Shown one piece after another: positions 11,963 to 46,026 of a DNA stretch of 57,288 bases. The DNA lies in assembly GCA_944327195.1 (NCBI GenBank), contig CALVGV010000010.1, forward strand, positions 1 through 57,288. The letters are read 5' to 3'. The stretch is from an uncultured Limosilactobacillus sp. (GTDB lineage: Bacteria > Bacillota > Bacilli > Lactobacillales > Lactobacillaceae). Position numbers and translations under genes: made by a program. Position 1 is the stretch's first letter, and the number at the start of each line of letters is the position of its first letter. The notes beneath the pieces are model-generated. The model did no database searches. It saw only the letters and a list, made by a program, of their open reading frames with translations, and was not told where the DNA came from.

Positions 11963-12036
11963 GAATTGATCCTTTCGGTGGTTTTGAGGGGCCTGCGCTC
12001 CGCGAAACGTAGCCCTGCTGGAACGCCGGGGCCTCC

Positions 12037-12169
12037 GGGGAGTAGCTTCCGGGAGACTGGAACGGGGTGGGCACAACTTTGAGCCCGTTCCGGTCTCAAA
12101 GCTTGGCCTTGTTCTAGGCGATAAATCGCCAAGAACAATTTCACCCCTGAGCTCCCGGGTCTACTCCCC
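12037..12169 (+). repeat. Family 1 structured repeat, copy A
   Basis: An outer stem pairs GGGGAGTAG (12037-12045) with CTACTCCCC (12161-12169), CCGGGAG with CTCCCGG, and GGGGTG with CACCCC. Two inner hairpins follow: CTTTGAG/CTCAAAG at 12077-12101, and TTGTTCT-A-GGCGA paired with TCGCC-A-AGAACAA at 12109-12138 with a TAAA loop. The sequence of the outer stem differs from the other copies but pairs just as well. Confidence 0.8.
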
Positions 12170-12344
12170 TCCGGCGGTGGTACCACTGCTACTTTTCGCA
12201 CTTGGAGGGAGGAGGCTTCACTTTGGCAGAAATTCCCCGGCTGAGGGAGCTATTTTCGCTCGGTCGACAACTGCTGATAAACAATGCTACTAACAAGTGA
12301 CGGCACGTGGAACGGGCAACTTTCCGGCTAAACGAAAAATTAGC

Positions 12345-12422
12345 GTGATCCTAGTTCATCCCTAGAATCACTAGCCAATCGAACCACTACGAATAAGTGG
12401 TTGTTGCCTGATCACAATCAGG
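12345..12422. repeat. Three small hairpins in tandem
   Basis: GTGATCCTAG with CTAGAATCAC (12345-12371, one mismatch), CCACT with AGTGG (12384-12400), and CCTGA with TCAGG (12407-12422) are stacked within 80 bases upstream of citXG. They could be RNA structure, operator sites or leftovers of a repeat. Confidence 0.45.
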
Positions 12423-12450
12423 TGCCTTAGTAGCACTTCGTCGCCGGGCC

Positions 12451-12590
12451 GGAGCGGAGCAAAAGGGCGGGCCAAGATAGCGAAATTTCACTTGGCGGGT
12501 TTCCCGCCTAGTGAAAGGTCGAGCTTTGAGACTCTGCAAGAGGCTCAAAGTCGTGCCCGCTATCGTCACGGTCCCGCCCCTTTTGCGGAG
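12451..12590 (-). repeat. Family 1 structured repeat, copy B
   Basis: Inverted relative to copies A and C. Outer stem: GCAAAAGGGCGGGCC (12459-12473) with GGTCCCGCCCCTTTTGC (12570-12586), then GATAGCG (12476-12482) with CGCTATC (12558-12564). Inner hairpins: TTTCACT and GGCGGG with CCCGCC and AGTGAAA at 12486-12516, and CTTTGAG with CTCAAAG at 12524-12550. Nearly the same sequence as copy D near 44886. Confidence 0.85.
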
Positions 12591-12712
12591 CGGAGGCCCA
12601 CCATCGTCACGGCCCACAATTTTCGCGGAGCGGAGGCCCTCCACCCCATCATAAAACAAAAGAAGCCAGGAACAAACTCCCGACCTCTGCTGTTTACTGA
12701 ATTTGCTAGTGG

Positions 12713-14263
12713 CTAGTCCTTTACCTGCTTGATCACGTCGATCAGGCTGCCGTCGCGGTAGGTAACCAGGGCAACGGTGCGGTCGGTGTATTCAAGCGGT
12801 TGCGGCTTACCAACGATCTTTTCGGCCCGTTGTTGCAGTTCCTCAATCGAAACCAGCGGCAGGCCCGGGACCTGCTTGAAGGCGTCAATCAGGTCTTGGC
12901 GCTTCGGGTTAACCGCGATCCCAACTTCGGTAACCAGGACGTCAATCGAGCTCCCCGGCGTAACCACGGTCGAAACCTTCGGCACAACGGTGGCGATCCG
13001 GCCCCGGGTCAGCGGCGCGGAGATGATCGTCATCTTGGCCGTGGCGGCGTCTTGGTGGCCCCCAATCGCTCCCCGAATGACCCCGTTGGACCCGGTCATG
13101 ACGTTGACGTTGAAGTCGGTGTCGATTTCCAGGGCCGAAAGGATGGCCACGTCGAGTTGGTCAACCATTGCCCCCTTGTTTTCAGGGTCGGCGTACCAGG
13201 AGGCGTCGATTTCCTGCTGGTTCTTGTTGTTCTTCATCGAGGAAGCGGCGCCCTTGTCGAAGTCTTGGACGTCCATCACCTTGTTGACCAAGCCTTCTTC
13301 GAGCAGGTCAACGATCGGCTTGGTGATCCCACCGAGGGCGAAGGAGGCCTTGATGTCGCTGTCGATCATCGACTGGCGCAGGAAGCGGGCCACGGCCAGG
13401 GCAGCCCCACCGGAACCGGTTTGGAAGGAGAAGCCCTGCTTGAAGTACGGCGAGTGCACGATCACGTCGTTTACCATCTTGGCAATCTTGAGGTCCTTCG
13501 GGTTCTTGGTGAAGCGGGTGGCCCCAGTCCCGATCCTGTCCGGGTCGCCGACTTGGTCGACCTTAACCACGTAGTCGACCTGGGTCTGCTTGATCGAGGC
13601 CGGCGTGTTCGGGTAGTCAACCAGGTTGTCGGTCAGGAGAACCACCTTGTTGGCGTAGTTGGCGTCCATCAGGGCGTACCCGAGCGAACCGAAGGCGGCG
13701 TCGCCGGTCATCCCGTTGGCGTTCCCCAGCCGGTCGGCGTTCGGTACTCCGAGGAAGGCAACGTCGATCTTGATTTCGCCGTTTTCAATCGAACGGGCGC
13801 GGTTCCCGTGGGAACGGAAGATGACCGGGTTCTTGAGCAAACCGTGGGAAACGGCTTCCCCGAGGCTGCCCCGCATCCCCGAGCTGGTGATGTTGGTGAT
13901 CGTTCCGGCCTTGATGGCTTCAACCACCTTGTCGTTCATCGTGTTGGTCAACGACGACGGCGCCAGGGTCAGGTCCTTGATGCCGAGGGAGATGATTGCG
14001 TCCATCACCTTGTTGAAGATGAAGTCCCCTTCACGCAGGTGGTGGTGGAAGGAAATCGTCATCCCGTCCTTAACCAGCTTCTTGACGATGTCTTCGATCG
14101 AGTCGACCACCTTGTCATCCCCGGTCGAAACCCGCACTTGCGGGGCCGTCCGTTGGATTTCCGGGTTGCCGATTTCGGTGCTTTCAAAGCCCTTGCGCGT
14201 TTCTAAGAATTCTGCCGGAATTTCGCGTTCTACCTTATTCTTCAATGTATTCACCATCCTCAT
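12713..14263 (-). CDS. citF: Citrate lyase alpha subunit CitF
   Basis: Citrate:acetyl-ACP transferase; it swaps acetate for citrate on the CitD thioester, giving citryl-ACP. The 516 residues are the full family length, with the Gly-rich [13 protein letters not shown] and [12 protein letters not shown] segments of this CoA-transferase-like family. The start lies inside the end of citE (overlap of about 29 bases). Two in-frame ATGs (14263, 14257) are possible and neither has an obvious ribosome site, so it is probably translated by coupling. Last of citC-D-E-F. Confidence 0.96.
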
Positions 14264-15140
14264 CAATCAGGCCAGATGCCTTTGCCAAGCGCAATACCCG
14301 TTGAGCGCGGAGCACCACTGGGCGGTCAACCATTTGCCCGTTCATCGAGATCACCCCGGAACCCTTGGCGTTGGCTTCTTCGATTGCCGCTTCCACGTCG
14401 AGGGCGTTTTCGATTTCCTTCTTGGTCGGTTCGTAAACCTTGTTGACCCAGTCGATTTGCCGCGGGTTAACCAGCGACTTGCCGTCGAAGCCGAGTTGGT
14501 GGATGTGCTCGGTTTCGCGTTGGAAGCCTTCCACGTCGTTCATGTTGGTGAAGACGGTGTCGAAGGCGGCGATCCCGGCCGCCCGGGCGGCGTGGAGGAT
14601 CATGTTGCGGGCAAATTCAAGCTCCGCCCCGTCTGGGTAGCGGTGGGTCTTCATGTCGGTGGTGTAGTCTTCCGCCGACAGGGCCAGGCCGATCATCCGG
14701 TCGGTGCTTTCGGCGATTTCCAGGGCCTTGAGAACCCCGCGGGCGCTTTCGATGGCGGCCATCACGTGGGTGGTACCAACCGGAATGTTGAACTTCTTCT
14801 CGGCTTCTTCAACCACGGCCACCAGGTCCTTCATCATTTGGGCCGATTCAACCTTCGGCAGGCGGACCACTTGGATCCCGGCCTTGACCATTGCGAAGAC
14901 GTCGTTCTTGAAGTAAGGGGTGTCGATCCCGTTAACCCGGACAACCAGTTCGGCATCGCCGTAGTCCTGGGTTTGCAGGGCCTCGTAGACCAGCATCCGC
15001 GCCGCGTCCTTTTGGTCCATCGAAACCGAGTCTTCGAGGTCGAACATGATCGAGTCGGCCCCGTAGATCCCGGCATCCTTAACCATCCCGGCGTTGTTGC
15101 CCGGGACAAACATCATCGTCCGCCGTAAGCGTTCTTCCAT
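14235..15140 (-). CDS. citE: Citrate lyase beta subunit CitE
   Basis: Citryl-ACP lyase; cleaves citryl-ACP to oxaloacetate and acetyl-ACP. The 301 residues show [11 protein letters not shown] at the start, the metal-site region [10 protein letters not shown], and [14 protein letters not shown] mid-protein, all typical of the CitE/HpcH family. The ATG (MEERLRR) begins one base after citD ends, with GAGGTG before it. The frame runs further upstream only through citD. Confidence 0.97.
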
Positions 15141-15141
15141 C

Positions 15142-15435
15142 TTAAAGCACCTCCCAGTTTGGTTCGTCAACCGTCCCCAAAGCACGTTGGGCAGCCGCCA
15201 GGGTCCGCGCCTTGATCACGCAGTCCAGCGCCCCCTTGTCAACGGCCTTGACCTGGGTGTTGTCGATTCCGGCCGCCTGCAACGTGGTCGTGATGACCTG
15301 CTTGATTTGCGGGCCGTAGAGGGCTTCGACGGAGGAGTCGAGCTCGATTTGAATCCCATTGCTCCCTTGGCTGAGGGTGATTTGGATATCCGAGGATTCC
15401 AAGGTCCCCGCCAGGGCGGTTTGCTTAATTTCCAT
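15142..15435 (-). CDS. citD: Citrate lyase acyl carrier protein CitD
   Basis: 97-residue carrier subunit that holds the phosphoribosyl-dephospho-CoA group. The attachment serine is expected at residue 14 in GTLESSDIQI. The start ATG is three bases past the citC stop. Its prosthetic group is made and attached by the downstream CitX-CitG fusion, then acetylated by CitC. Confidence 0.96.
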   Translation of the reverse strand: MEIKQTALAGTLESSDIQITLSQGSNGIQIELDSSVEALYGPQIKQVITTTLQAAGIDNTQVKAVDKGALDCVIKARTLAAAQRALGTVDEPNWEVL

Positions 15436-15438
15436 TCC

Positions 15439-16470
15439 TTACTTACTTCCCTTCTTCTGAATCCGTGCCTGTAAGTCGGCAAAGTTCTCCTTAACAAAGG
15501 TCAAGGTGGTTGGTGGCAACAAGCGGGCCAGCTGGTCCTGATCCCCCGCCAGGATTGCCTGCCGGACCGTGGTCGCGGAAACAATCTCGCCTGCTTCCGT
15601 GTGGCGGGGAATGATCTTGACGGCCACTTGCGGGGCTAAGACTGCCGAGAGGGCAGCGTTATAGGCCGCGGTCGTCTTAGAAGTGGGCTCTTCACCCAGG
15701 TAGCGGGCGGTGATGTGCAGCGGCTTGGCGATCGAATCGCGAAAGATCGTCGCGTCCAACTCGGCCTGGTAGGCGCCGATTTCCTGGTCCGACTTCAAGA
15801 AGTAGGCCGGGAAGGTGGCGCTGGAGACCATGTAGTCGCCGCCGGGGACGACCACCACGTTGGTAAGGTCGCTGACCCCCTGCTTGACTAGGTCAAAGCG
15901 CTCGGCAAAGGTGAAGACGGAGCGGTCGGCCTGGACAACGAAGAGGTAGACCTGGTCGTTTTCGGCGCTGGCCTTCTCCACTAGGGCGCGGTGGCCCTTG
16001 GTGAAGGGGTTGGCGTTCATCACGATCGCCGCCGTCTTCCCCCGCTCAAAGTGGGGCAGGTTCGCCAGGTAGTCGCTAACCCCCGGGGTACCGCTTTCCA
16101 AAAAGGCCCCCTGATCGGTCTGGGCCAGCGGCTTGAAGCCGACGTAGCCGAAGCTCTTGACGTACTTGGGCTTGGTGAAGACCAACAGGTGGAAGCGGCC
16201 GCGGCTGGCCTCCTCGTTGACCAGGTGGGAAACCACCTGGTTGAAGAGGGCGCCGCCGTCCTTGAACTTCTCGCACACGGCCACGTACTTGAGCACCTTG
16301 CCGGCAATCGAGCCGGTGGCGGCGAGCTCGCCGTCCTCTTCCCACACGTAGGTCTTTTCGATCGGCGCCAGTTCGGCCTGGCCAAACTCGTGAATGCCGT
16401 TGTGCTCCATGAATGCCTGCCAGCGTTTGCGGTAACGCGGAAGCCGCAGGTTGTATTCGCGGATCTGCAC
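15439..16470 (-). CDS. citC: [Citrate lyase] ligase CitC
   Basis: Acetylates the CitD prosthetic group with acetate and ATP, switching citrate lyase on. The 343 residues have a GNAT-like N-terminal half and a nucleotidyltransferase C-terminal half with the HIGH-like MNANPFTKGHRALVEKA. The start is GTG after a GGGGAGG site with short spacing. First gene of the citrate lyase operon, divergent from the regulator gene. Confidence 0.95.
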   Translation of the reverse strand: MQIREYNLRLPRYRKRWQAFMEHNGIHEFGQAELAPIEKTYVWEEDGELAATGSIAGKVLKYVAVCEKFKDGGALFNQVVSHLVNEEASRGRFHLLVFTKPKYVKSFGYVGFKPLAQTDQGAFLESGTPGVSDYLANLPHFERGKTAAIVMNANPFTKGHRALVEKASAENDQVYLFVVQADRSVFTFAERFDLVKQGVSDLTNVVVVPGGDYMVSSATFPAYFLKSDQEIGAYQAELDATIFRDSIAKPLHITARYLGEEPTSKTTAAYNAALSAVLAPQVAVKIIPRHTEAGEIVSATTVRQAILAGDQDQLARLLPPTTLTFVKENFADLQARIQKKGSK

Positions 16471-16520
16471 AGATCCTCCCCCTTCCTGGTAAAAAGCTCA
16501 CTAATAAACAAGCTGATTTT

Positions 16521-16582
16521 AATATACCACTTTGTTTAACTTTTTTAAATAACAACGGCAAATTTAATGTTTTTAAAATTTA
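16521..16582 (-). promoter_or_regulatory. citC promoter and AT-rich control region
   Basis: On the minus strand a TATATT -10 box (16521-16526) has no good -35, as expected for an activated promoter. The 50 bases upstream are strongly AT-rich with repeated TTTAA and TTTTAAA blocks. CitI of Weissella binds comparable AT-rich sites between citI and citC, so this is the likely regulator target. Confidence 0.55.
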
Positions 16583-16588
16583 CTCACC

Positions 16589-16617
16589 TTGTCCTCCCCG
16601 GCCAATCCCGGTAAAAT
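16589..16617 (+). promoter_or_regulatory. Promoter of the citrate regulator gene
   Basis: TTGTCC (16589-16594) and TAAAAT (16612-16617) are 17 bases apart, facing the regulator. GAGAGAGGA lies before the ATG at 16684. Confidence 0.6.
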
Positions 16618-16683
16618 AGATGATAAGAATTATCGCTTAATCGCCCCCGGTTCGGCAATACTAAGCAAGAGAGAGGAATTACG

Positions 16684-17625
16684 ATGGACGCGCAACACTC
16701 ACTGCTCCTGGGAAACCTTGCCCAGGACTACTATTTCAGCAAGATGCCAATCAACAAGATGGTGGAAAAGTACTCGCTCAGCCGCTACCTGATCCTCAAG
16801 TACCTCGACGAGGCGCTGGCCAGCGGGATCGTGGAAATCACCGTCCACGCCAGCTACGAGCGGCGGGTCGAGCTGGAACGCCAGCTCAAGGAGCACTTCA
16901 AGATCCCCCACCTCTACGTGGTTGCCGACCCGACCAACCTAGCCAAGCGCGACGACCGGGTGGCCGCCTTCGCCGCCATCCAGGCCCAGTCGCTGATCAA
17001 GCAGGCCCAGGTGGTCAGCCTCTCCTGGGGGGAGACGATCTTTGAGGTGATCGACCACTTCGTCAAGACCGAGCAGGAGGAGTTGACCTTCGCCCAGTTC
17101 ATGGGGGAAAACATGAAGTACCACTCCTCGACCGGGTCGATGCGGATGGTCCAGCGAGCGGCGGCCAAGTTCGGCGCCCACTACTTTACCATCCCGGGCC
17201 CATTATACATCCTAAACGACCAGGTGCGGGCCGGATTCATGGCCGAACCGTCGATTGAGCGGACCCTGGCCGTGGCCAAGCGGGCCGACCTGATCATCAG
17301 CGGGATCGGCACCCTCGAGTCGGTCGATTCGATCCCGCTCTGGAACGAGAACCGGGCGGCGATCTTCCCCGAGGTGGCCGCCGACCAGGTGGCGGGGATG
17401 GTCTTTGGCCGCCCCTACGACGTCAACGGCGTCTTCCTCAACGCCGGCCAGGACAAGTGCCTCTCCCTGCCGCTGGACACGATCCTAAAGGTGCCGCGCC
17501 GCTTTGCGATCGTCCAGGGGAAGTCGAAGTACCGGGCCGCGCTCGGCGCCCTACGCGGCGAGTTCTTCACCGACCTGGTAATCAACGAGGCGACCGCCGT
17601 CCGGATCCTCAACGAGCTCAAGTAA
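16684..17625 (+). CDS. citI: SorC/DeoR-type regulator of citrate genes (CitI-like)
   Basis: 313 residues. The N terminus (about 1-55) holds a helix-turn-helix (INKMVEKYSLSRYLILKYLDEA), and the rest is the sugar-binding-like effector domain of the SorC family with GISGIGTLES-type segments. In Weissella and Leuconostoc the homologous CitI activates citrate genes when citrate binds. Here the gene is divergent from citC and followed by the transporter on the opposite strand, which supports that role. The name rests on family and context. Confidence 0.82.
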   Translation: MDAQHSLLLGNLAQDYYFSKMPINKMVEKYSLSRYLILKYLDEALASGIVEITVHASYERRVELERQLKEHFKIPHLYVVADPTNLAKRDDRVAAFAAIQAQSLIKQAQVVSLSWGETIFEVIDHFVKTEQEELTFAQFMGENMKYHSSTGSMRMVQRAAAKFGAHYFTIPGPLYILNDQVRAGFMAEPSIERTLAVAKRADLIISGIGTLESVDSIPLWNENRAAIFPEVAADQVAGMVFGRPYDVNGVFLNAGQDKCLSLPLDTILKVPRRFAIVQGKSKYRAALGALRGEFFTDLVINEATAVRILNELK

Positions 17626-17639
17626 CTTTTCCTCTCCTT

Positions 17640-17678
17640 AACAGCGCTGGTGGCGATTCTCCCCCAGCGCTGTTTTTT
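17640..17678 (+). terminator. Terminator of the citrate regulator gene
   Basis: AACAGCGCTGG pairs with CCAGCGCTGTT and is followed by a T run, 15 bases after the stop codon. Confidence 0.88.
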
Positions 17679-17694
17679 TCCGTCCCCACACACG

Positions 17695-17723
17695 AAAAAA
17701 GCACCGCCGCAGCGGTGCTTTTT
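17695..17723 (-). terminator. Terminator of the DASS transporter gene
   Basis: AAAAAGCACCGC and GCGGTGCTTTTT form a stem with flanking A/T runs just past the transporter stop codon. It may act in both directions. Confidence 0.85.
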
Positions 17724-17738
17724 GAATGCAATTAAGAA

Positions 17739-19157
17739 CTAGCCGAGGCCAATCATCTTCATCCAGAGGATGCCGACCGTGGACAGAACCACGATGTAGA
17801 AGATCCCGAGGACGAAGTTCAGCTTCCACCAGGTCCCCTGCTTAACGTAACCAGAGGAAGCCAGGATCGAAGCCGGCCCGTTGGCGTAGTGGGTAGTCGA
17901 GGCCATCACGGCAGACATGGCGGCCAGGAACATGGCGGCCAGGTAGTGCGGGGCCCCGGCGGAGATGGCCACCCCGAGGAACGGAGCGTACATCGCCGTC
18001 ACGTGGGCCGTGGCACTGGCAAAGAAGTAGTGGGTGTAGAAGAGGACGACCCCGAGGATGACCAGGACGGTAACCCAGCCCATCCCGTGGAGGCTAGATG
18101 CCATCGCGTCCGACAGCCACTTGATCAACCCGGATTCGGTGAGCAGGCCGGCCATGTAAACCAGGATACTCAACCAAACCAGCACGTTCCAGGCCCCCTT
18201 TTCGGCCAGAACGTCTTGAACCGAGAGGACCCCGGTAACCAGGAGAATGTCGATTGCCAAGAAGGCAATGAAGGTGGCGTCCATCCCGGTAACGCTGGTC
18301 AGCATCCAGAGAACCAGGGTCAGGATGAAGGCGAAGCTCATGATGATTTCACCCGGCTTCATCTTGCCCATCTTGTCCAGTTCACCTTCGGCCCATTCCT
18401 TGGCGTTCGGCGTTTGCTTGATCTTCGGCGGGAAGAGCTTGTAGATGATCCACGGAACAACGACCAGGCAAAGCAGGACCGGAATCGAAGTTGCCAGGAA
18501 CCAGCCGATCCAGGTGATGTGGACGCCGAGCTTGTCGGCCATTTGCATGGCAACCAGGTTCGGGGCCATCGCCGTCATGAAGAGGGCACTGGTCAGCAGG
18601 TTGGCGTGGAACTCGGTGAAGACCAGGTAGGACCCGATTTCGCCTTCGGTCCCCTTGTCCGGGGTCGAGTTGAAGGTTTCGGCCAGCGACTTGATCAGCG
18701 GGAAGACGATCCCCCCGGCCCGGGCGGTGTTACTTGGCGTCGCCGGGGCGGTGATCAGGTCAATCCCGGTGATGGCGTAGGCCAGCCCGAGGGTCCGCTT
18801 CCCGAAGAGGCGGACGAAGATCAGGGCCACCCGGCGGCCGAGCCCGGTCTTAACGATCCCCCGCGAAAGAAGGAAGGCCATCGCGATCAGCCAAGCGGCG
18901 GAGTTTTCAAAGGCGGTCAGGGCCGTCTTCATGTCGGTGAAGCCAAGGGCAACGGTCAGGACGAACCCGATCAAGGTAACCCCGGCAATCCCGAGGGGTT
19001 GGGTGATACAACCGACAATCGTGGCCACGAAGAGGGCCAGCAGGTGCCAGGCAGTAACCGAGACCCCGCTCGGCCGGACTGGCGCGGTAAACCAGATCAA
19101 GAGGCCAATCACGATCGGCCAGATGAACTTTTTATAGTTGATTTTCTCTAATTCCAT
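17739..19157 (-). CDS. DASS-family citrate/dicarboxylate transporter
   Basis: 472-residue membrane protein with about a dozen hydrophobic helices, matching the divalent anion:sodium symporter family (CitT/YflS type). Family segments include ITAPATPSNTARAGGIVFP, with the substrate-site SNT motif, and a second repeat near ASTTHYANGPASI. It sits in the citrate cluster and is the only likely citrate carrier in the window, in place of the CitP (2HCT) carrier of Leuconostoc. It may exchange citrate for succinate, acetate or malate; this is not visible in the sequence. Confidence 0.88.
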   Translation of the reverse strand: MELEKINYKKFIWPIVIGLLIWFTAPVRPSGVSVTAWHLLALFVATIVGCITQPLGIAGVTLIGFVLTVALGFTDMKTALTAFENSAAWLIAMAFLLSRGIVKTGLGRRVALIFVRLFGKRTLGLAYAITGIDLITAPATPSNTARAGGIVFPLIKSLAETFNSTPDKGTEGEIGSYLVFTEFHANLLTSALFMTAMAPNLVAMQMADKLGVHITWIGWFLATSIPVLLCLVVVPWIIYKLFPPKIKQTPNAKEWAEGELDKMGKMKPGEIIMSFAFILTLVLWMLTSVTGMDATFIAFLAIDILLVTGVLSVQDVLAEKGAWNVLVWLSILVYMAGLLTESGLIKWLSDAMASSLHGMGWVTVLVILGVVLFYTHYFFASATAHVTAMYAPFLGVAISAGAPHYLAAMFLAAMSAVMASTTHYANGPASILASSGYVKQGTWWKLNFVLGIFYIVVLSTVGILWMKMIGLG

Positions 19158-19514
19158 TGTTCAACCTCATTCAATCCATCGAATAAATGCGTTTTCCAAC
19201 CAATAATTGCAAGCCTTTCCACTTGCCGCCGACCGCGGAATCGCCGGTTTTGTGAAAAGTATCATTTGATTACGGTATCCATTATACACCAAGTCCTTTT
19301 GAAAATCTTTAATTCTTTTGCTCTTTTTTGAACAATTAAAAAAGGAAAGCCGGTTCCGCTTGCAAATTAAGGATCCTCCGTCCCGAACTTTGATTAGTTA
19401 GTGAAAATGCCCCTGGCGGCTTGTTTTCAAAAATGGCGGCCCCCACCCACCACTGCCAAGCAGGGTTGTGAACAGCGGCCACAAGTCCCGCGGGGCCGCC
19501 TTTGCTGGAAAGCA
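19158..19514. promoter_or_regulatory. Leader of the transporter gene and spacer to fusA
   Basis: On the minus strand TGTATAAT (-10 at 19281-19286) gives a 5' leader of about 120 bases for the transporter. The leader contains a GC-rich segment that can form a weak hairpin. Beyond it, to the fusA terminator, nothing recognisable was seen. Confidence 0.55.
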
Positions 19515-19552: not shown

Positions 19553-19567
19553 CCCGGTAGGCAATAA

Positions 19568-36874: not shown

Positions 36875-36924
36875 GCTTGCCTCCTTGGAATTTACTTTTG
36901 GGGGGTGTGGGGTGGTGGGGGTGG

Positions 36925-37190
36925 CCTCCGCTCCGCGAAAGGGGCGGGACCGTGACGATGGTGGGCACAACTTGCGAATGTTACTTAGTCGGAGAGCGAC
37001 TGAAAGGAGCGCTCAGGCTTAGAAACATTCCATGCGATAGCCATCCAAGAACGAGGAGCTTTGCGACGAGCGATTGGCGAATGGCGAACCGCTTGAGCCC
37101 CATGCGGGTCTCAAAGCTTGGCCTTTCACTAGGCGGTAAACCGCCAAGTGAAACTTCACCATCTTGGCCCGCCCTTTCGCTCCGCTCCGG
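36925..37190 (+). repeat. Family 1 structured repeat, copy C with an insert
   Basis: Outer stem CGAAAGGGGCGGG with CCCGCCCTTTCG (37170-37180 region), then GATGGTG (36957-36963) with CACCATC (37157-37163). The hairpin TTTCACT-A-GGCGGT with ACCGCC-A-AGTGAAA is at 37124-37153; the other one, CTTGAG with CTCAAAG at 37092-37116, is weakened. About 120 extra bases (36969-37090) sit in the junction. Confidence 0.8.
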
Positions 37191-37192
37191 CC

Positions 37193-37389
37193 AGGTGGTA
37201 CCAATGCAACTAAGAGTAGGACCGATGTGCGAAGGCTCCTTTGCCAGAAAGCGACCACTAGGATCTTAAGAGCTCTGGAACCTTTTCTCCGGTAACCACC
37301 CAAGAACGAGGAGTGATTGGCTTGTGGCGAACCGGGCAAGCATTTTAGCCCGCCGGTTCGCTCCGCTCCGGCTCGGTGGTACCAGTGCA
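37193..37389. repeat. Repeated GGTGGTACCA motif
   Basis: GGTGGTACCANTGCAACTAAGAG occurs next to 37195 and 37376, and a similar GGTGGTACCACTGCTACT at 12176. The core resembles the T-box sequence (UGGNACC), but no specifier hairpin or downstream gene supports a T-box. Confidence 0.55.
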
Positions 37390-37508
37390 ACTAAGAGCGG
37401 GCCGAAGTTTCCAACTAAGATCAGAAATAGCTTCCTTACCCTAGTTTTTCTTCAGAACTTCTCCTAGAACCGCCCCATTGCTTAGCCCCGTAGCCTTTTT
37501 GTTCGCCC

Positions 37509-38492
37509 CTAGTGGACGTCATGGAGGCGGTTCATTAGTTCTTCCACCACCCGGTCGCGGTCGTGGAAGGCGCCGTTATCCTTTAGGCGCAGGAAGTTGG
37601 CCGAGATCACCCGGCAGCCCTGGGCCCGCAGGCCGGCGAAGTCGTGGCGGACCGGCTCGGAAATCTCGTTCCACTCCTGGAAGTTGATGTAGTCCTCCGG
37701 CACCGGTTGGATGTTGACCAGGACCGTGTCGATGAACTGCTTGCCGAGGTGGTCGTTGAGCACCCGGACGTGGTCGGCGTCGGTGAAGTGGTCGGTCTCC
37801 CCCTTCTGGGTCATGATGTTGCAAATGTAGACCACCTCGGCGCTGGTTTCGCGGACCGCCTCGCCGACGTTATCAATCACCAGGTTCGGCAGGATGCTGG
37901 TGAAGAGGCTCCCCGGCCCGAGGATGATCTGATCGGCGTCGTGAATCGCCTCGATCACCGCGTGCATCCCCGCCGCCTGGTGACCGTCGTTATCGTTGGT
38001 CGGCGTGATCCAGACCCGCTGGATCTGCTTGTGGGCGGCGGTGATCTCCGCCTCCCCGCTCAGGGTGGTGCCGTCGGTGAACTCGGCGTTTAGAGTCAGC
38101 GGCTCGCGGGCCACCGGGTAGATGTGGCCCTTGATCTGCATCAGCTGGCTCAGTTCCTGAACCGCCTGGTAGATGTCGCCCTTCATTTCGGCGAGGGCGG
38201 TGATGATCAGGTTGCCGATCGCGTGGCCGGCCAAAAACTGGTCGGAGCTATCAAAGCGGTACTGGAAGATATCGCGCTCCACCTTCGGCATGGTGGTCAG
38301 GGCCACCAGGGCGTTGCGGATGTCGCCCGGCGGAACGACGTTGATGTAGTTGCGCAGGATCCCCGAGGACCCGCCGTCGTCGGCGACCGTTACCACCGCC
38401 GTAATGTCAATGTTTTTGTCGCGCAAGCCGCGCAAGATGATCGGCAGCCCGGTCCCGCCGCCAATCACGACTACCTTTGGTCGATGTCGCAT
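37509..38492 (-). CDS. yvcK: YvcK/GlnK-type gluconeogenesis factor
   Basis: 327 residues. The start [18 protein letters not shown] and later [13 protein letters not shown] match the CofD-like fold of YvcK. In Bacillus it binds UDP-GlcNAc and is needed for growth on gluconeogenic sources and normal cell shape. It begins 17 bases after rapZ ends. Confidence 0.93.
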
Positions 38493-38509
38493 ACTGATTC
38501 CTTCTTTTC

Positions 38510-39382
38510 TTACTTTGCCTTGTCCACGTCGCGGTGGTGGATGTAGGTGTTATAGCCGGCTTCCTTGAGGGCGCTGCCCAGCCGGTTGGCCAGGGTAACC
38601 GAGCGGTGCTGACCGCCGGTGCAGCCGATCGCAATCGTCAGGCTCGACTTGCCCTCGTTGACGTAGCCCGGCAGGGCCCCCTCGATCAAGGACAGGAGGT
38701 GCTGGTAGAAGTTTTGCGCCAGCGGCGACTTCATCACGTAGTCCTGGACCGGTTGGTCGTTGCCGGTCAGGTGCTTGAGCTCCGGCAAATAGAAGGGGTT
38801 GGGCAGGAAGCGGACGTCCATCACGATGTCGGCGTCCAGCGGCAGGCCGTACTTAAAGCCGAAGGACTCGACCTGGATGTAGAAGGGCGGGCGGCCGCTG
38901 CCGTCGCCGAAGTAATCGGCGATCCGCAGACTGAGCTTGCGCGGCGTCAGCGGGGTGGTGTCGATCTTGACGTCGGCCTGGCTGTTGAGCTGGGCCATCA
39001 GGCGGCGCTCCCGTTGGATCCCGGCCAGCACGCCGTCGTGGTTGGCCAGCGGGTGGGCGCGGCGGGTCTCCTTGTAGCGGGAAACCAGCTTGACGTCGTC
39101 GGCGTCGAGGAAGAGGAGCTTCACCGCTAGGTCGTCCTGGGCCCGCAGCTCCTTCAGGCAGGGCGCGATCTGCTCGTAAAAGGCCCGCGAGCGCGCGTCC
39201 ATCACCATCGCCATCTTGGTGAACTCACCCGACTGCTTGATGACGTCGACGAACTGGTGGGCCAGGCTCGGCAGGATGTTATCGATCACGAAGTAGCCGA
39301 GGTCCTCGAAGGCGTGCACGGCAACCGTCTTGCCGGCCCCGCTCATCCCGGTGATCACAACCACCTCAAATTTCTTTTCCAT
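38510..39382 (-). CDS. rapZ: RNase adapter/UDP-GlcNAc sensor RapZ
   Basis: 290 residues from [21 protein letters not shown] (Walker A near residues 12-19). The C-terminal part contains [10 protein letters not shown] and [18 protein letters not shown]. In E. coli it controls GlmS through small RNAs; in Firmicutes its job is less clear, but it is linked with YvcK and UDP-GlcNAc. First gene of rapZ-yvcK. Confidence 0.94.
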
Positions 39383-39473
39383 ATGGTTTCCACCCCTTTT
39401 TAGAATACTGCCCAATTCTAACACACCGGGCGTGTCATTTCAGCGAAAATTCTGAAAATCCCGCTTAACAAAG

Positions 39474-39500
39474 AAGCGCCGCGGGATTCCCGTGACGCTT
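39474..39500 (-). terminator. Terminator of uvrA
   Basis: AAGCGCCGCGGG and CCCGTGACGCTTT form an imperfect stem seven bases past the uvrA stop. Confidence 0.65.
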
Positions 39501-39506
39501 TCATCG

Positions 39507-42365
39507 TTATTTTTCCTGCTTGGCGGCCCGGGCCGCGTCGCGTTCCAGCATCTTCTTCAAATACTGGCCGGTGTAGGAGGCGGGCACCTGGGCCACCTCC
39601 TCCGGGGTCCCGGTGGCCACGATCTGGCCGCCGGCCGCCCCGCCCTCGGGCCCGAGGTCGATCAGGTAGTCGGCCGACTTGACGACGTCGAGGTCGTGCT
39701 CGATCACCAAGACGGTATTGCCGGCGTCGACCAGCCGCTGCAGAACGGCCAGGAGGCGCTTGATGTCGGCCATGTGGAGGCCGGTCGTCGGTTCGTCGAG
39801 GATGTAAAAGCTCTTGCCGTGCGACTGACGGTGGAGTTCGCTGGCCAGCTTCATCCGCTGGGCCTCCCCGCCGGAGAGGGTCGTCGCCGGCTGGCCGAGG
39901 TGGACGTAGCCGAGACCAACGTCCTCGATCGTCTGCAGCTTGCGGCGGATCTTCGGGATCGCCGAGAAGAAGTCGAGCGCCTCGCTGACCGTCATGTCGA
40001 GCACCTGGGCGATGTTCTTGCCCTTGTACTCTACCTCGAGGGTCTCGGAGTTGTAGCGGGTACCGTGGCAGACCTCGCAGGGTACATAGACGTCGGGGAG
40101 GAAGTTCATCTCGATCTTGATGATCCCGTCCCCGTGGCAGGCCTCGCAGCGGCCACCCTTGACGTTGAAGCTGAAGCGGCCCTTGGAGTAGCCGCGCACC
40201 TTGGCGGCGTTGGTCTGGGCAAAGAGGTCGCGGATGTCGTCGAAGACCCCGGTGTAGGTGGCCGGGTTCGAGCGCGGCGTCCGCCCGATCGGCGACTGGT
40301 CGATGTCGATCACCTTCTCGACGTTCTCGATCCCGGAAAGCGACCGGTACTTGCCCGGCTTGGCCGAGTTGTTGTTCAGCTTCTGGGCGAGGATTCGCTT
40401 GAGGATCTGGTTGACCAAGGTCGACTTACCGGAGCCGGACACCCCGGTCACGCAGGTGAAGGTGCCGAGCGGGAACTTGACCGTCAAGTCCTTGAGGTTG
40501 TTCTCGGCCGCCCCGGTCAGGGTCAGGTAGTGGCCGTTGCCCTCGCGCCGCTTGGCCGGCACCGGAATCTGCTGCTTGCCGGATAGGTACTGGCCGGTCA
40601 GCGACTTGCGGGCGCGCATGATCTGCTTGGGGGTGCCGGCGGCCATCACCTGGCCCCCCTTCTCGCCGGCGCCGGGGCCGATGTCGATGATGTAGTCGGC
40701 CGCCAGCATCGTGTCCTCGTCGTGCTCGACCACGATCAGGGTGTTGCCGAGGTCGCGCATCTTCTTCAGCGAGGCGATCAGCCGGTCGTTGTCGCGCTGG
40801 TGGAGACCAATCGATGGCTCGTCGAGGACGTACATCACCCCGGAGAGGTTGGAGCCAATCTGGGTGGCCAGCCGGATCCGCTGGGCCTCGCCCCCGGAGA
40901 GGGTCCGCGCCGAGCGGCTGAGGGTCAGGTAGTCGACGCCGACGTTTTGCATGAAGGTCAGCCGGTCGATGATTTCCTTCAGGATCGGCTTGGCGATCTT
41001 GGCCTTGGCCTCCGGCAGGTCGAGGCCGTGGAAGAAGGTCAGCTCGCGGCTGATCGGCAGGTCGCTGACCGCGCCGATGTTTTCGCCGCCCACCTGGACG
41101 GCCAGCGCCCGCTCGTTGAGCCGGTAGCCGTGGCAGACCGGGCAGGCCAGCTCGGTCATGTACTTGCGCATCTGCTCGCGGGTGAAGTCGGAGTTGGTCT
41201 CGCGATAGCGGCGGGAAACGTTGTTGACGACCCCCTCAAAGGGCACGTCGACATCGCGGACGCCGCCGAAGTCGTTTTCGTAGTGGAAGTGGAAGAGCTG
41301 GTCGCCGTTGCCGTAGAGGAGCTGCTTTTGCTGCTTCTTGGGCAGGCCAGCGAAGGGGGTGTTCATGTCGATCCCGGCGGATTGGCAGAATTGGGCCAGC
41401 ATCTCCGGGTAGTACTTAGAGGAAATCGGGTTCCAGGGCACCAGCGCCCCCTCGGCCAGGGTCTTCTCGCGGTCGGGGATCACCAGGTCCTCGTCGACCT
41501 CAAGCTTTTGCCCCAGCCCCTCGCAGGCCGGGCAGGCGCCGATCGGGGCATTGAAGGAGAAGAGGCGCGGTTCCAGCTCGCCGACGGTGAAGCCGCAGAT
41601 CGGGCAGGCGTACTGCTCGGAGAAGAAGAGCGGCTCGCCGCCGATCACGTCGACGGTCGCGTAGCCCTCGCTGAGGCGCAAAGCGGCCTCAAAGGAGTCG
41701 AAGAGGCGCGAGCGGATCCCCTCCTTGACCACGATCCGGTCGACGACGACCGCAATCTCGTGCTGCTGGTTCTTGTTGAGCTCCGGCACCTCTTCCAGGT
41801 CGTAGGTTTCGCCGTCGACCCGGACGCGGACGAAGCCGCCGCGCTTGATCTCCTCGAGGACCTTCTTGTGGGTTCCCTTCTTGCCGCGAACCACCGGGGC
41901 CAGGATCTGGAGCTTGGTCCGCTCCGGCAGCTGGAGGACGCGGTCGACCATCTGCTCGGGCGACTGGCTGGTGATCGGGATGTGGTCGTTGGGGCAGATC
42001 GGGGTGCCGACCCGCGCCCACAGCAGGCGGAGGAAGTCGTTGATCTCGGTGACCGTGCCGACCGTCGAGCGCGGGTTGTGCGAGGTCGTCTTCTGGTCGA
42101 TTGAGATCGCCGGCGAGAGGCCGTCAATCGAGTCGACGTCTGGCTTGTCCATCTGGCCCAAAAACTGGCGGGCGTAGGCGGAGAGGCTCTCCACGTAGCG
42201 ACGCTGCCCCTCGGCGTAGAGGGTATCGAAGGCGAGCGAGCTCTTGCCCGAGCCGGACAGGCCGGTGATCACCACCAGCTTGTTCTTGGGAATCGTCACG
42301 TCGATGTTCTTGAGGTTGTGGGCCCGGGCGCCCTTGATCACAATCTTGTTATTCGTGCTTGCCAC
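39507..42365 (-). CDS. uvrA: Excinuclease ABC subunit A
   Basis: 952 residues; damage-recognition ATPase of nucleotide excision repair. Two ABC modules each with Walker A ([12 protein letters not shown] near residue 33; [12 protein letters not shown] near 640) and signature [18 protein letters not shown]. Zinc fingers appear as CPICG..CPACEG and CEACHG..CEVCHG. The GTG start overlaps uvrB by 17 bases, so uvrB and uvrA are coupled. Confidence 0.98.
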
Positions 42366-44394
42366 TGTTCTTCTTTCCCCTTCCCTTCTTTTGCTTGGCG
42401 GTCAGCTCCATGATCGTGTCGCGCAGGGTGGCCGCCTGCTCGAAGTCAAGCCGCTTGGCCGCCGATTGCATCTGCTCGGTCAGCTCGGTCAGCATCGTCT
42501 CCTGGTCGGCCGCCGACAGCTTGGCGAAGTCGGCCGCGGTGAACTCGGCCGACTGGTCGTCTGCCGTCTCGTCGACCTTCTTGACCGCGGTGATTGCCTC
42601 CTGGATCGGCTTGATGATCGTCTTCGGCGTGATGTGGTGCTTTTGGTTGTAGGCCTCCTGGATCGACCGCCGCCGCTTGGTTTCCTCGATCGCCGCCTTC
42701 ATCGAATCGGTGATTGTGTCGGCGTACATGATGACCGCCCCGTGGGCGTTGCGGGCCGCCCGGCCGATCGTTTGGATCAGCGAGCGCTCGTTGCGCAAAA
42801 AGCCTTCCTTGTCGGCGTCGAGGATCGCCACCAGCGAAACCTCGGGAATGTCGAGCCCCTCCCGCAAGAGGTTGATACCGACCAGGACGTCGAACTTGCC
42901 CAGCCGCAGGTCGCGGATGATCTGGGTCCGCTCGAGGGTCTTGATGTCGGAGTGGAGATACTTGACCTTGAGGCCAAGGTCCTTCATGTAGTCGGACAGG
43001 TCCTCGGCCATCTTCTTGGTCAAGGTGGTGATCAGCACCCGCTCGTGTTTTTCGATCCGCTGGTTGATCTCGCCAACCAGGTCGTCGATCTGGCCCATCA
43101 CCGGCCGGACCTCGATCGTCGGGTCGAGCAGGCCGGTCGGCCGGATGATCTGTTGCACCACGTGGTCGGTCTGGGCCTCCTCGTAAGGGCCCGGGGTGGC
43201 CGACATGTAGATTACCTGGTTGACGTGGCCCTCGAATTCCTTTAGGGTCAGCGGCCGGTTGTCGAGGGCCGAGGGCAGGCGGAAGCCGTAGTCGATCAGC
43301 ATCTGCTTGCGGGCCTTGTCGCCGTTGTACATCCCCCGCACCTGGGGCATCGTCTGGTGGGACTCGTCGACCACCAGCAGGAAGTCCTTGGGGAAGAAGT
43401 CGAGCAGGGTGTAGGGCGGCTCGCCGGGCTTGCGGCGGTCCATGTAGCGGGAATAGTTTTCGATCCCGTTGGTGTAGCCCATCTCGCGCATCATTTCGAT
43501 GTCGTAGGTTGTCCGCTGCTGGATCCGCTGGGCCTCCAGCAGCTTGCCCTCCTTGGTGAACTTGGCGACCTGCTTCTTGAGGTCGGCCTCGATCTCTGGC
43601 AGGGCCAGGTCCATGATTTCGTCGCTGGTCAGGAAGTGGGTGGCCGGGAAGATCGACACGTGTTCCAGCTCTCCGGTCACCTCGCCGGTCAGGGCGTCGA
43701 CCTCGCGGATCCGGTCGATCTCGTCGCCGAAGAACTCCACCCGCAGAGCCTTCTCCTCCCGCGAGGCCGGGAAGATTTCGACCACGTCGCCGCGCACCCG
43801 GAAGCGTCCCCGCTGGAAGTCGATGTCGTTGCGGTCAAACTGGATCGTCACCAAGTCGCGCAAGAGGCGGTCGCGGGAGATCTCCTGGCCGACCCGCAGG
43901 GAAACGACGTGGTTTTGGTACTCGGCCGGCGACCCGAGACCGAAGATGCTGGAAACCGAGGCGACCACGATCACGTCGTTGCGTTCGAGCAAGGACGAGG
44001 TGGCCGAGTGGCGCAGCTGGTCGATTTCATCGTTGATCGAGGCGTCCTTTTCGATGTAGGTATCGCTGGAGGGAACGTAGGCCTCGGGTTGGTAATAATC
44101 ATAGTAGGAAACGAAGTACTCGACCGCGTTGTGGGGGAAGAACTTCTTCATTTCCCCGTAGAGCTGACCGGCCAGGGTCTTGTTGTGCGACAGGATCAGG
44201 GTCGGCTTGTTGACGTTCTTGATCACGTTGGAGATGGTGAAGGTCTTCCCGGTCCCGGTGGCCCCCAGCAGGATCTGGGCGTGTTCGCCCTCCTTAACCC
44301 CCTTGGTGAGGGCCGCGATGGCCTCCGGCTGGTCCCCGGTTGGCTGGTAGTCGGAAACCAGGTCAAATTGCTGGTCGTCCTGGCGGTAAATCAT
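42349..44394 (-). CDS. uvrB: Excinuclease ABC subunit B
   Basis: 681 residues from [10 protein letters not shown]. Helicase motifs: Walker [18 protein letters not shown] box, and [10 protein letters not shown]; the beta-hairpin region [12 protein letters not shown] binds damaged DNA, and the C-terminal UVR helix pair (about 640-680) meets UvrC. The ATG follows GAGGGGGA. A longer frame through the repeat region upstream is rejected. Order uvrB-uvrA as in most Firmicutes. Confidence 0.98.
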
Positions 44395-45018
44395 TGTCAA
44401 TCCCCCTCGAAAAAGTGCTGTCCCTAGTGTAGCACGCGAACATTCTTTCCGAAAAGAAATTGGATTGGCGATTTTGAAAAAAAGTTGGTGGGGGGCCTGC
44501 GCTCCGCGAAGTGAGCGGGACCGTGACGAAAGACGATCCATAAACTGGGAAAAACAAGGGGCGATATCGGCTTTCCCACAGAAGGGACCAGTGGGAGAGT
44601 GCGGTGATAGTCTTTTGGATAGATCCCGCTAAGGCTTTTAACCAAGCGTAAATGGTGTAGCCACGCGGACAAAGGGAAGCGAGGGGCCGCTTGCTAATCA
44701 GTCACCGGAATGTGACTAGTCCGTCCTAAATTTACCTCTTCCCGTTGGTTGCTTGTAGGAAAAATGGCTCCCTATCGTCAGCAGTGTCATTTCTGAAAAA
44801 AAGGCGGCCGGTCCACAAAGAGGCAACCATTTCGCTTTTCCCAGTTTGGTAGCTGGGGTTCGCCATCGTTGCCGGCCGGAGCGGAGCGAAAATGCGGGCC
44901 AAGATAGCGAAATTTCACTTGGCGGGTTTCCCGCCTAGTGAAAGGTCGAGTTCTGAGACCCGGAGGGGCTCAGAATCGTGCCCGCTATCGTCACGGCCCG
45001 CAATTTTCGCGGAGCGTC
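44395..45018. other. Repeat-filled region between the LacI-type gene and uvrB
   Basis: About 620 bases without a gene. It contains the left end of one family 1 unit (44497-44525), a far-spaced inverted repeat AAACTGGGAAAA (44542-44553) and TTTTCCCAGTTT (44836-44847), and the complete copy D at the end. Frames here are by-products of the repeats. The uvrB promoter was not recognised. Confidence 0.75.
44886..45010 (-). repeat. Family 1 structured repeat, copy D
   Basis: Outer stem GCGAAAATGCGGGCC (44886-44900) with GGCCCGCAATTTTCGC (44995-45010), then GATAGCG with CGCTATC. Inner hairpins TTTCACT-T-GGCGGG with CCCGCC-T-AGTGAAA (44913-44943) and TTCTGAG with CTCAGAA (44951-44975). It ends eight bases before the stop codon of the LacI-type gene. 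Confidence 0.86.
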
Positions 45019-46026
45019 CTACACCGACGGCGCCTTCACCCAGCTCACCGGCACGAAGGTCGTCGCCGCGCCGGGTTTACCGGCCTCAATCTGCTCCAGG
45101 AGGCGCTTGGCCGCCAGGTTGCCCATCATTTCCATGTCCTGCTTAACCAGGAAGATCCCCTCGCCAACAAAGCGCGACCAGGCCCAGTCGTCAAAGCTAA
45201 CCAGGCCAACGTCTTGCGGAAAGGACCAGCCCTGCTCCTTGAAGATCGCCAGCAGGTCGAAGAGGACCGGCCCCATCAGCGAGATGATCACCGTCTTCCC
45301 CTTCAGGCTACTGACCCACTTGACCAGCTGGGCCGCCAGGTGGGCGCGGTCTTCGCCCTGCGTGGTGGGGATGTTGAGGTAGTTGGCCCCGGTGGCGTCG
45401 GCCGCCGCCTGGAGGCCGGCCATCCGCGGCAGTTGGCCCGAGGCCTCGGCAAACTGGGCGCTGACCGAGAGCAGGTTTTGGTAGCCCTGCCCAACCAGGT
45501 AGCGGCCGAGGTCGTAGCAGGCGGTCCGGTTGGGGCTGGTCACCCGGCCGACGTTGAGCGGCTGGTCGGCCACCTCGCGATCGACCACCACCAGCGGGCA
45601 GCCGCCGTCAATCACCGCCTGGTACTGGGCAAAGGCGCGCGAATCGGGCTGGACAATGATCCCGTCGACCTGCTGGCTGGCCAGCCGCCGGAGGGCGCGG
45701 GCCTCGCTGGCCTTGTCGTTGTTGGTGTTCATCAAGAGCAGGTCGTAACCGGCCGGCTGCAAGACGTCGTCGACCCCCTTGGCCAAGAGGGAGGAGAAGG
45801 GGTTGCCGATGTCGCCGACCAGGAGGCCGACCAGGTTGGTCTTGTCCTGGCGGAGGCGGCGGGCCGAGGCGGCCGGGGCGTAGTTTAAAGCGGCGATCGT
45901 CTTGGCGATCCGCTCACGGGTGGCCGGCCGCATCCGTTCATAGTGGCCGTTGAGGTAGCGCGAAACGGTGGTCACCGACACCCCGGCCTGCTTGGCAACG
46001 TCCTTGATGGTTGCGTGTTGGTACAT
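45019..46026 (-). CDS. gntR: LacI-family regulator of gluconate genes
   Basis: 335 residues. The N-terminal helix-turn-helix TIKDVAKQAGVSVTTVSRYLNGH and hinge ALNYAPAASARRL are classical, followed by a periplasmic-binding-like effector domain (NLVGLLVGDIGNPFSS). It follows gntK and gntP and so probably represses them until gluconate or 6-phosphogluconate binds. The ATG (MYQHATIKD) is preceded by a GGGGGAAAG site. The symbol reflects context only. Confidence 0.85.
   Translation of the reverse strand: MYQHATIKDVAKQAGVSVTTVSRYLNGHYERMRPATRERIAKTIAALNYAPAASARRLRQDKTNLVGLLVGDIGNPFSSLLAKGVDDVLQPAGYDLLLMNTNNDKASEARALRRLASQQVDGIIVQPDSRAFAQYQAVIDGGCPLVVVDREVADQPLNVGRVTSPNRTACYDLGRYLVGQGYQNLLSVSAQFAEASGQLPRMAGLQAAADATGANYLNIPTTQGEDRAHLAAQLVKWVSSLKGKTVIISLMGPVLFDLLAIFKEQGWSFPQDVGLVSFDDWAWSRFVGEGIFLVKQDMEMMGNLAAKRLLEQIEAGKPGAATTFVPVSWVKAPSV

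What the first reader, a model, noticed from the sequence alone, without database searches (positions are those of the whole stretch)
11987..45020. Family 1: multi-branched intergenic repeat with covarying stems
Four full copies (12037-12169, 12451-12590, about 36925-37190 and 44886-45010) plus fragments share one plan: an outer stem closing two inner hairpins. Paired bases change together. The inner arm is TTTCACT/AGTGAAA in three copies but TTGTTCT/AGAACAA in copy A. GATAGCG/CGCTATC in B and D is GATGGTG/CACCATC in C. CTTTGAG/CTCAAAG in A and B is TTCTGAG/CTCAGAA in D. Copy A has an outer stem of different sequence that still pairs. A mismatch in the hairpin is kept in all copies (A-A or T-T). 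This pattern means the fold is selected, as RNA or as single-stranded DNA. Copies lie upstream of citXG, whiA and uvrB, all minus-strand genes, but in both orientations.
Basis: seen in the sequence. Interest (0 to 1): 0.88.

Follow-up and report, generated by a model that had tools for sequence, protein, structure and literature searches.

The report
Paired T-shaped DNA repeats in lactobacilli
Intergenic DNA repeats that fold into a conserved three-armed shape, and often sit as mirror-image pairs, are scattered through many lactobacilli; they look like an unreported kind of small mobile element whose folded ends, more than its letters, are what is kept.

Summary
The ~145-nt core (outer stem closing two hairpins, a three-way junction) has 83 model matches in the window's own genome and occurs in 34 of 151 sampled Lactobacillaceae genomes (12 of 40 genera); an order-wide sample gave no match outside that family. 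Covariation is strong: 26 of 48 pairs change on both sides, 98.5% of cells pair, 0 of 500 shuffles reach this. Unpaired features are also fixed, such as a T·T mismatch in 39 of 39 aligned copies. Where opposite cores lie within 700 bp they always point outward: 18 of 18 here, 23 of 23 in other loci. In this genome the two cores of such a unit tend to be of different types (permutation P=0.0003; not significant in two other species). Window copies A and B form one unit, between citF and citXG. No Rfam family matches. A RAYT/IS200-type transposase is not the driver: 19 of 34 carrier genomes show none. Best reading: a REPIN/MITE-like non-autonomous mobile element with structure-recognised ends; the enzyme is unknown and no fresh insertion was caught. 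A transcribed RNA function is the main rival.

The parts
12036..12177 (-). Core A, type-1 end (internal loop CTCAG/CGTTCCAG, hairpin TTGTTCT/AGAACAA); left end of unit 1, right foot outward
   Evidence: R1 122.9 bits, E 1.2e-28; DNA fold z -8.2
12178..12445 (.). Interior of unit 1, 268 bp; its first ~80 bp resemble parts of three other own-genome interiors or flanks at about 75%; no other match of 50 bp or more was listed for the rest
12446..12599 (+). Core B, type-2 end (internal loop CCAAGA/TCGTCACGG); right end of unit 1, with right foot GGAGCGGAGGCC
   Evidence: R1 152.1 bits, E 6.1e-36 for 12446-12592; 88% to copy D
12600..12639 (+). Orphan right arm (outer-stem 3' strand plus foot) just outside unit 1
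   Evidence: read from sequence
11990..12033 (-). Orphan right arm (type-1 letters GTTCCAG) just outside the other end of unit 1
   Evidence: read from sequence
37094..37193 (-). Core C, left foot, hairpin 1 and part of hairpin 2
   Evidence: 37094-37192, 87% to D; R1 87.4 bits for 37057-37193
36969..37093 (.). ~125-bp insert in hairpin 2 of core C (second repeat family)
   Evidence: gap between the core pieces; similar stretches in other own-genome loci (read)
36929..36968 (-). Right arm and foot of core C, beyond the insert
   Evidence: 85% to D positions 106-144
37317..37397 (-). Weak core remnant (left foot) next to C
   Evidence: R1 18.4 bits, E 0.017 at 37319-37374; 88% direct repeat 37160-37216/37341-37397
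44873..45018 (+). Core D, type-2 end, single; right foot touches the stop codon of the LacI-type gene 45022-46122 (-), left side faces uvrB
   Evidence: R1 166.5 bits, E 1.5e-39

Best explanation
These are the ends of small non-autonomous mobile elements, comparable in layout to REPINs or MITEs. A complete unit is two cores in inverted order, right feet outward, around a weakly conserved interior (168-680 bp here; shorter, down to none, elsewhere); here usually one core of type 1 and one of type 2. When a strand is single (lagging strand, or an extruded cruciform), each end folds into a T-shaped three-way junction with fixed irregularities: a T-T mismatch, a bulged G, an A-G mismatch, an AAA junction strand and, in several genera, purine GGA/GGA loops at the foot. 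I infer that an enzyme supplied in trans recognises that shape for cutting, joining or exchange. Shown: the shape, its covariation, the fixed irregularities, the outward inverted pairing, the two end types in this genome, a sharp outer boundary, spread over genera and onto plasmids, helix-by-helix exchange, tandem duplication and loss by deletion. Inferred: mobility, single-stranded DNA as the active form, and the enzyme.
For: 83 matches in the own genome, but only 5 of 50 same-genus genomes including it, and 34 of 151 in the family: patchy spread. Model-confirmed cores on 4 of 6 plasmid stretches tested: two Levilactobacillus brevis and two Lactiplantibacillus plantarum records. Orientation: opposite-strand neighbours within 700 bp are '-+' 18 of 18, 23 of 23 elsewhere, one of them a duplicate record, 16 of 16 in the Levilactobacillus stretches. 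Right foot median 60 bp from a gene (72 determined), left foot 432 bp (56 determined). Two end types: within-unit identity 0.688 against 0.748 in random pairing, P=0.0003, 15 of the 18 pairs used. Sharp outer border: C-rich for 7 bases after the foot, then background, 58 feet. G-U only 1.2-2.2% of pairs against 6.6% in 18 tRNAs of the same DNA, with G-U about twice A-C: strict pairing, one preferred strand. Cores lie in either direction to genes: gene 3' end faces the right foot in 46, 5' end in 26, undetermined in 8 of 80.
Against: No transposase is linked to the cores. Between sister species L. tongjiangensis and L. yonginensis, 19 of 21 element groups with an identified orthologous span hold a core in both. 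The two differences look like a deletion leaving a foot, and a 233-bp indel without target duplication: no clean new insertion. The two-type rule is not significant in L. yonginensis (P=0.18, 10 units) or in Ca. L. merdipullorum (P=0.055, 5 units). The foot loop GGA/GGA is absent by my strict test in several carriers, e.g. 0 of 22 in Ca. L. merdipullorum, 0 of 6 in L. brantae, 0 of 7 in L. tongjiangensis and L. yonginensis together. The low-G-U argument has an imperfect control: ARAGORN reported no A-C pair in the tRNAs, so only G-U compares. Two L. paracasei plasmid hits were not confirmed by the model.
Confidence: 0.55

Rival explanations
1. The fold works as RNA: a structured small RNA or untranslated-region element transcribed from the core strand (for example two divergent RNAs from one unit), spread secondarily.
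For: Fold much better than shuffles with RNA parameters; G-U more tolerated than A-C on the core strand (60 against 26 cells in the inner helices of A2; 48 against 27 single transitions between sister species); paired sites change more slowly than flanks; in G047 (L095) a T-box match (97 bits, 1258-1465) lies beside a unit next to a gene that I read as ileS.
Against: Cores stand in either direction to neighbouring genes (46 against 26); G-U is about 3 to 6 times rarer than in tRNAs; no Rfam match to the core in the window or in the 10 loci tried. No transcript data were available.
Confidence: 0.25
2. Covariation is mutational: inverted arms template each other (template switching) or are overwritten by gene conversion from other copies, with little selection on the fold.
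For: Whole helices swap with their partners at orthologous sites (L190:6740 against L182:6465 has 11 compensated pairs and no single change; L127 against L137 differ in hairpin 1 and outer stem but share hairpin 2); broken pairs accumulate in resident copies (44 of 1526).
Against: Fixed mismatches and bulges inside the helices and the foot loop GGA/GGA in 24 of 101 non-own cores against 2.5 with permuted right arms are not explained by arms copying each other.
Confidence: 0.13
3. Bidirectional terminator or mRNA-end element placed at gene ends (as recalled for Enterococcus Efar repeats).
For: 38 of 57 right feet within 150 bp of a gene face its 3' end; very stable hairpins.
Against: 19 of those 57 face a 5' end; copies lie between genes of one direction in the cit and yvcK-whiA regions; no T-run is evident at the feet (read); terminator-like hairpins are seen by eye in some interiors.
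Confidence: 0.07

Closest known systems
REPINs (inverted REP doublets moved by RAYT transposases; PMC3116915 and PMC3733652, passages seen)
   Same: Inverted doublets with a less conserved spacer, intergenic, many copies, singlets that look like decayed doublets
   Different: Ends are ~145-nt three-way junctions instead of 20-40-bp palindromes; no GTAG tag in the consensus; own genome has one Y1 gene, read as plain IS200 TnpA, and no core within the 2-kb locus around it; 19 of 34 carrier genomes show no Y1 transposase
MITEs with long terminal inverted repeats
   Same: No coding capacity seen, inverted ends, hundreds of bp, intergenic
   Different: The two ends tend to be of different types in this genome and are kept by fold as much as by letter; no target-site duplication at the one clean indel; no parent transposon found
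Efa-1 / Efar repeats of Enterococcus faecalis (Efa-1: 163 bp, 65 copies, pair of adjacent stem-loops; PMC2267715 passages; Efar recalled only)
   Same: Size, paired hairpins, intergenic
   Different: Sequence relation not testable here; the order-wide sample gave matches only in Lactobacillaceae
bcr1 of the Bacillus cereus group (name, size and copy number from PMC2267715 passages)
   Same: ~150-bp intergenic repeat with predicted fold and, by the title of its paper, mobile-element character
   Different: Other family of bacteria; not compared by sequence
Forked or T-shaped ssDNA recombination sites (CTX phage attP, parvovirus terminal repeats; recalled)
   Same: T-shaped folded ends
   Different: Analogy in shape only; no homologous enzyme looked for or found

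Membership tests
REPIN/RAYT | inverted doublet as the unit | tested here: met
   '-+' in 18 of 18 opposite-strand neighbours within 700 bp, own genome
REPIN/RAYT | short (20-40 bp) palindrome tagged GTAG | tested here: not met
   ~145-nt three-way junction, consensus without GTAG
REPIN/RAYT | Y1 tyrosine transposase in the genome, flanked by the repeats | tested here: not met
   one Y1 gene in own genome, read as IS200 type, no core in its 2-kb locus; Y1 in 15 of 34 carrier genomes and 29 of 117 others, taking the two draws of 151 as the same; flanks of Y1 genes elsewhere not looked at
MITE | target-site duplication | tested here: inconclusive
   none at the one clean indel L205/L170; flanks of 24 units printed and looked over by eye only
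MITE | terminal inverted repeats alike at both ends | tested here: not met
   within-unit identity 0.58-0.86, mean 0.688, below random pairing in the own genome
Known Rfam RNA family | match to a covariance model | tested here: not met
   0 matches in the window at gathering threshold; in 10 loci at E<=1 only a T-box beside a unit
Efa-1/Efar | sequence homology to the E. faecalis repeat | not testable with these tools
   repeat sequence not at hand and genomes unnamed; order draw of 198 genomes, 3 with matches, all Lactobacillaceae
Cis-regulatory leader RNA | constant orientation to the downstream gene | tested here: not met
   right-foot neighbour 46 convergent, 26 downstream sense, 8 undetermined of 80

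The most novel reading that the evidence does not exclude
A new class of bacterial mobile element with two different ends on opposite strands, each recognised as a folded three-way junction of single-stranded DNA (T-T mismatch, purine GGA/GGA zipper at the foot) by an enzyme that is not of the Y1 HUH family. It would evolve by swapping whole helices between copies, so that the shape is inherited while the letters turn over.
Probability: 0.3. Interest if true: 0.88.

Novelty: new variant of a known kind. Interest (0 to 1): 0.72.

Why it matters
Palindromic repeats are common in bacteria, but a family held together by a three-way-junction fold across genera, laid out as outward inverted pairs and independent of Y1 transposases, is not among the families that my searches showed. 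If the ends are recognised as folded single strands, it points to an unknown recombinase in widely used food and gut bacteria. It also gives a natural data set, tens of copies per genome in many genomes, in which to watch a nucleic-acid shape evolve by block exchange.

Tried and rejected
Rfam: no family for the core. RAYT/REPIN: rejected as membership. Autonomous partner: the DNA between opposite cores more than 1 kb apart was inspected in two loci and held ordinary genes (an aldo-keto-reductase-like ORF in L089; carbohydrate-related ORFs in L138; my reading of the ORFs); the two '-+' own-genome pairs 0.7-3 kb apart were not inspected. Clustering ORFs of 110 codons or more in the loci then held gave household-type families by my reading, no shared transposase noticed among the 25 clusters printed. 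Phages: no blastn match of copy D; none in plasmids for that query, though other species' copies matched. Two L. paracasei plasmid hits were dropped after the model did not confirm them. Simple inversion of units between sister species: rejected. In three of six distinct units the whole unit matches better in reverse, but the interiors of those three score no better than shuffled sequence in either direction, while the interiors of the three direct ones are 84-95% identical; replacement by another unit fits better. Blautia pattern hits (L126, L130) were not confirmed by the model. Sharing of flanking genes between genera was not tested against chance and is not used as evidence. Papers: PMC2864571, PMC2267715, PMC3733652 and PMC3116915 were seen as found passages only; others as search listings. 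Efar, CTX attP, parvovirus ends and GNA-type DNA motifs are recalled.
Full report
WHAT IS THERE. The four copies exist and fold as described. A covariance model from 39 aligned copies (alignment, model) finds 83 matches at E<=1e-3 in the window's own 1.79-Mb genome. On the 39-row alignment (38 distinct rows) 98.5% of cells form a standard pair, 26 of 48 pairs show a change on both sides, and 0 of 500 shuffles reach any of the five measures; pairings slid by 1-3 columns give 40-46% paired. The alignment was made by sequence; its structure came from the same rows, so the slid control flatters it; shuffles do not keep relatedness.

ANATOMY. Core, 5' to 3' on the strand that the model reads: left foot; outer stem with an asymmetric internal loop; AAA at the junction; hairpin 1 with a T-T mismatch; hairpin 2 with a bulged G and an A-G mismatch; right outer arm; right foot. 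T-T is present in 39 of 39 copies here; across 99 cores of other species T stands in 81 and 94 of 99 on the two sides, the left side being A in 16. The foot is not a simple stem. In this genome it reads GGCC-GGA-GC-GGA-GC ... GC-GGA-GC-GGA-GGCC in the common type, so that GGA faces GGA twice. By a strict test (three Watson-Crick pairs on each side) 24 of 101 cores of other species have a GGA/GGA loop, against 2.5 GRA/GRA with permuted right arms. It is seen in zeae (8 of 12), chiayiensis (3 of 3), shenzhenensis (5 of 9), acidifarinae (1 of 3), faecigallinarum (1 of 3), an uncultured Lactobacillus (4 of 5) and unassigned loci (2 of 16); the other species tested show none, among them merdipullorum (0 of 22) and brantae (0 of 6). 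In the own genome the figures are 22 of 78 against 6.5, a weaker control because the copies are alike. The outer boundary is sharp: seven C-rich bases follow the foot, then background (58 feet).

THE UNIT. Opposite-strand neighbours within 700 bp are always '-+' (right feet outward): 18 of 18 in the own genome, with 7 '++' and 2 '--' besides; '+-' first appears at longer range (3 within 3 kb). Elsewhere 23 of 23, one of them a duplicate record, with 2 '--' and 1 '++'; 16 of 16 in the Levilactobacillus stretches, some at the same loci, with 1 '++' and 1 '--'. Right feet lie a median 60 bp from a gene (72 determined) and left feet 432 bp (56 determined); the right-foot neighbour shows its 3' end in 46, its 5' end in 26, undetermined in 8 of 80 cores (80 of the 83 were used). 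None was scored inside a gene, but my simple gene caller set aside ORFs under 600 bp that overlie a core. Window copies A and B are one unit of 268-bp interior between citF and citXG; C lies between yvcK and whiA; D stands alone, with its right foot at the stop codon of a LacI-type gene and its left side towards uvrB. In 15 of the 18 own pairs (left out: L057 and L031, truncated, and C31:4332/5148) the two cores are less alike (0.688) than randomly paired cores (0.748; P=0.0003): eleven pairs combine a GTTCCAG-loop end (type 1) with a CGTCACGG-loop end (type 2), one more is probably so (L041), and three are type 2 + type 2. The tendency is not significant in L. yonginensis (P=0.18, 10 units) and borderline in Ca. 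L. merdipullorum (P=0.055, 5 units). Interiors are mostly unique; a few match each other at about 70% over most of their length.

DISTRIBUTION. 5 of 50 genomes of the genus including the own one; 34 of 151 of the family, 12 of 40 genera; 3 of 198 of the order, all in the same family. These multi-genome searches used stricter filters that lose weak matches and capped the matches scored per genome. A pattern scan of named genomes gave 52 stretches in Lacticaseibacillus, Levilactobacillus, Lactiplantibacillus, Limosilactobacillus, Schleiferilactobacillus and an uncultured Lactobacillus, two of the 52 being Blautia; the model finds cores at E<1e-8 in 49 of the 52, a weak partial match in one (L101, E 0.036) and nothing in the two Blautia stretches. 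Plasmids: blastn matches in 6 and 17 records with two queries, two records being in both lists, none with copy D. Of six stretches fetched the model confirms four, from Lv. brevis (two) and Lp. plantarum (two), and not the two from L. paracasei. No phage match with copy D. The window's genus is taken to be Limosilactobacillus because same-genus genomes G025 and G026 share contig lengths with records of Ca. L. merdigallinarum and Ca. L. merdipullorum.

HOW IT EVOLVES. L. tongjiangensis has 38 core matches and L. yonginensis 49. In the fetched stretches, 21 of 34 element groups of L. yonginensis have an identified orthologous span in the fetched part of the sister; 19 of these 21 hold a core there, one of them only one of its two. 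The two without: one keeps only the right foot, so orphan right arms can arise by deletion; the other is a 233-bp indel without target duplication. Tandem duplication is seen (L206 against L173; L182 against L190). In one site a core of L. tongjiangensis is, in L. yonginensis, replaced except for its right arm by another structured sequence (L186/L187). Among 26 aligned core pairs, 25 helix pairs are compensated against 3.3 expected, but 11 of the 25 lie in one copy without any single change in a pair; 47 single changes keep a pair and 44 break it. With 21 direct orthologues, each folded in turn, stems change at 0.036, unpaired sites at 0.055 and flanks at 0.096 (flank alignments with 25% difference or more left out); single transitions keep the pair as G-T 48 times and break it 27 times, and 25 transversions break it. 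Whole helices differ together with their partners at orthologous sites. Of six distinct units compared, three match better in reverse; their interiors score no better than shuffled sequence in either direction, whereas the interiors of the three direct ones are 84-95% identical (for L203/L167 the second core of L167 was not detected, so its interior is approximate).

RNA OR DNA. G-U makes up 1.2% (own) and 2.2% (other species) of pairs against 6.6% in 18 tRNAs of the same DNA; A-C 0.5% and 1.1%. Strict pairing and cores in either direction to genes fit DNA better; the G-U preference over A-C says one strand matters, which fits single-stranded DNA or RNA. The alignment of other species' cores was fitted to the model, which leans towards pairs, and ARAGORN reported no A-C, so this is a hint only.

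MECHANISM. I read the units as non-autonomous mobile elements with structure-recognised ends. The usual candidate enzyme fails: the own genome has one Y1 gene, of plain IS200 type as I read it, without cores in its 2-kb locus, and Y1 genes occur in 15 of 34 carrier and 29 of 117 non-carrier genomes, taking the two draws as the same; carriers without Y1 include G173 (two contigs, matches at the scoring limit of 21). No other enzyme was found. Mobility is therefore inferred from spread, copy number, plasmid carriage and layout, not from a caught insertion.

STANDING AGAINST KNOWN KINDS. Layout like REPINs (PMC3116915, passages) but ends, tag and enzyme differ; size and double hairpin like Efa-1 of E. 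faecalis (PMC2267715, passages), homology untested. Nine full-text searches showed no description of this family; the library lacks most subscription journals.

Noticed in passing
window 36969-37093; also L031, L030, L035, L040, L059: A second repeat (~125 bp, beginning GCGAATGTTACTTAGT and ending GCGAACCGC) sits inside hairpin 2 of copy C; similar stretches lie in or beside other cores (clearly inside the outer arm in L031), so it may target these folds.
   Followed up: partly
L187:15060-15330: In L. yonginensis a different structured-looking sequence (GGAGACCAGGGAT ... ATCCCTGGTCTCC) stands where the sister species L. tongjiangensis has a core (L186:16017-16158); only the core's right arm remains.
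   Followed up: no
window 12170-12260; L013, L021, L041, L073, L017: GGTACC next to many left feet (15 of 36 type-1, 8 of 36 type-2 and 2 of 8 unclassified cores) resembles the T-box consensus on the opposite strand (recalled); possible captured leader remnant.
   Followed up: partly
L095:792-1120 and 1258-1465: A unit lies beside a T-box match and a gene read as ileS in G047; Ca. L. merdipullorum (L087) has a unit between the same neighbouring genes.
   Followed up: partly
L139 (Lacticaseibacillus brantae) 1752-2225: Three cores in direct tandem, about 168 bp apart, followed by an inverted one.
   Followed up: no
L009 (own) and L094 (Ca. L. merdigallinarum): Same intergenic site between an HD-domain-like and a DUF1934-like gene (names by my reading) carries cores in both species, with rather different letters.
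   Followed up: partly
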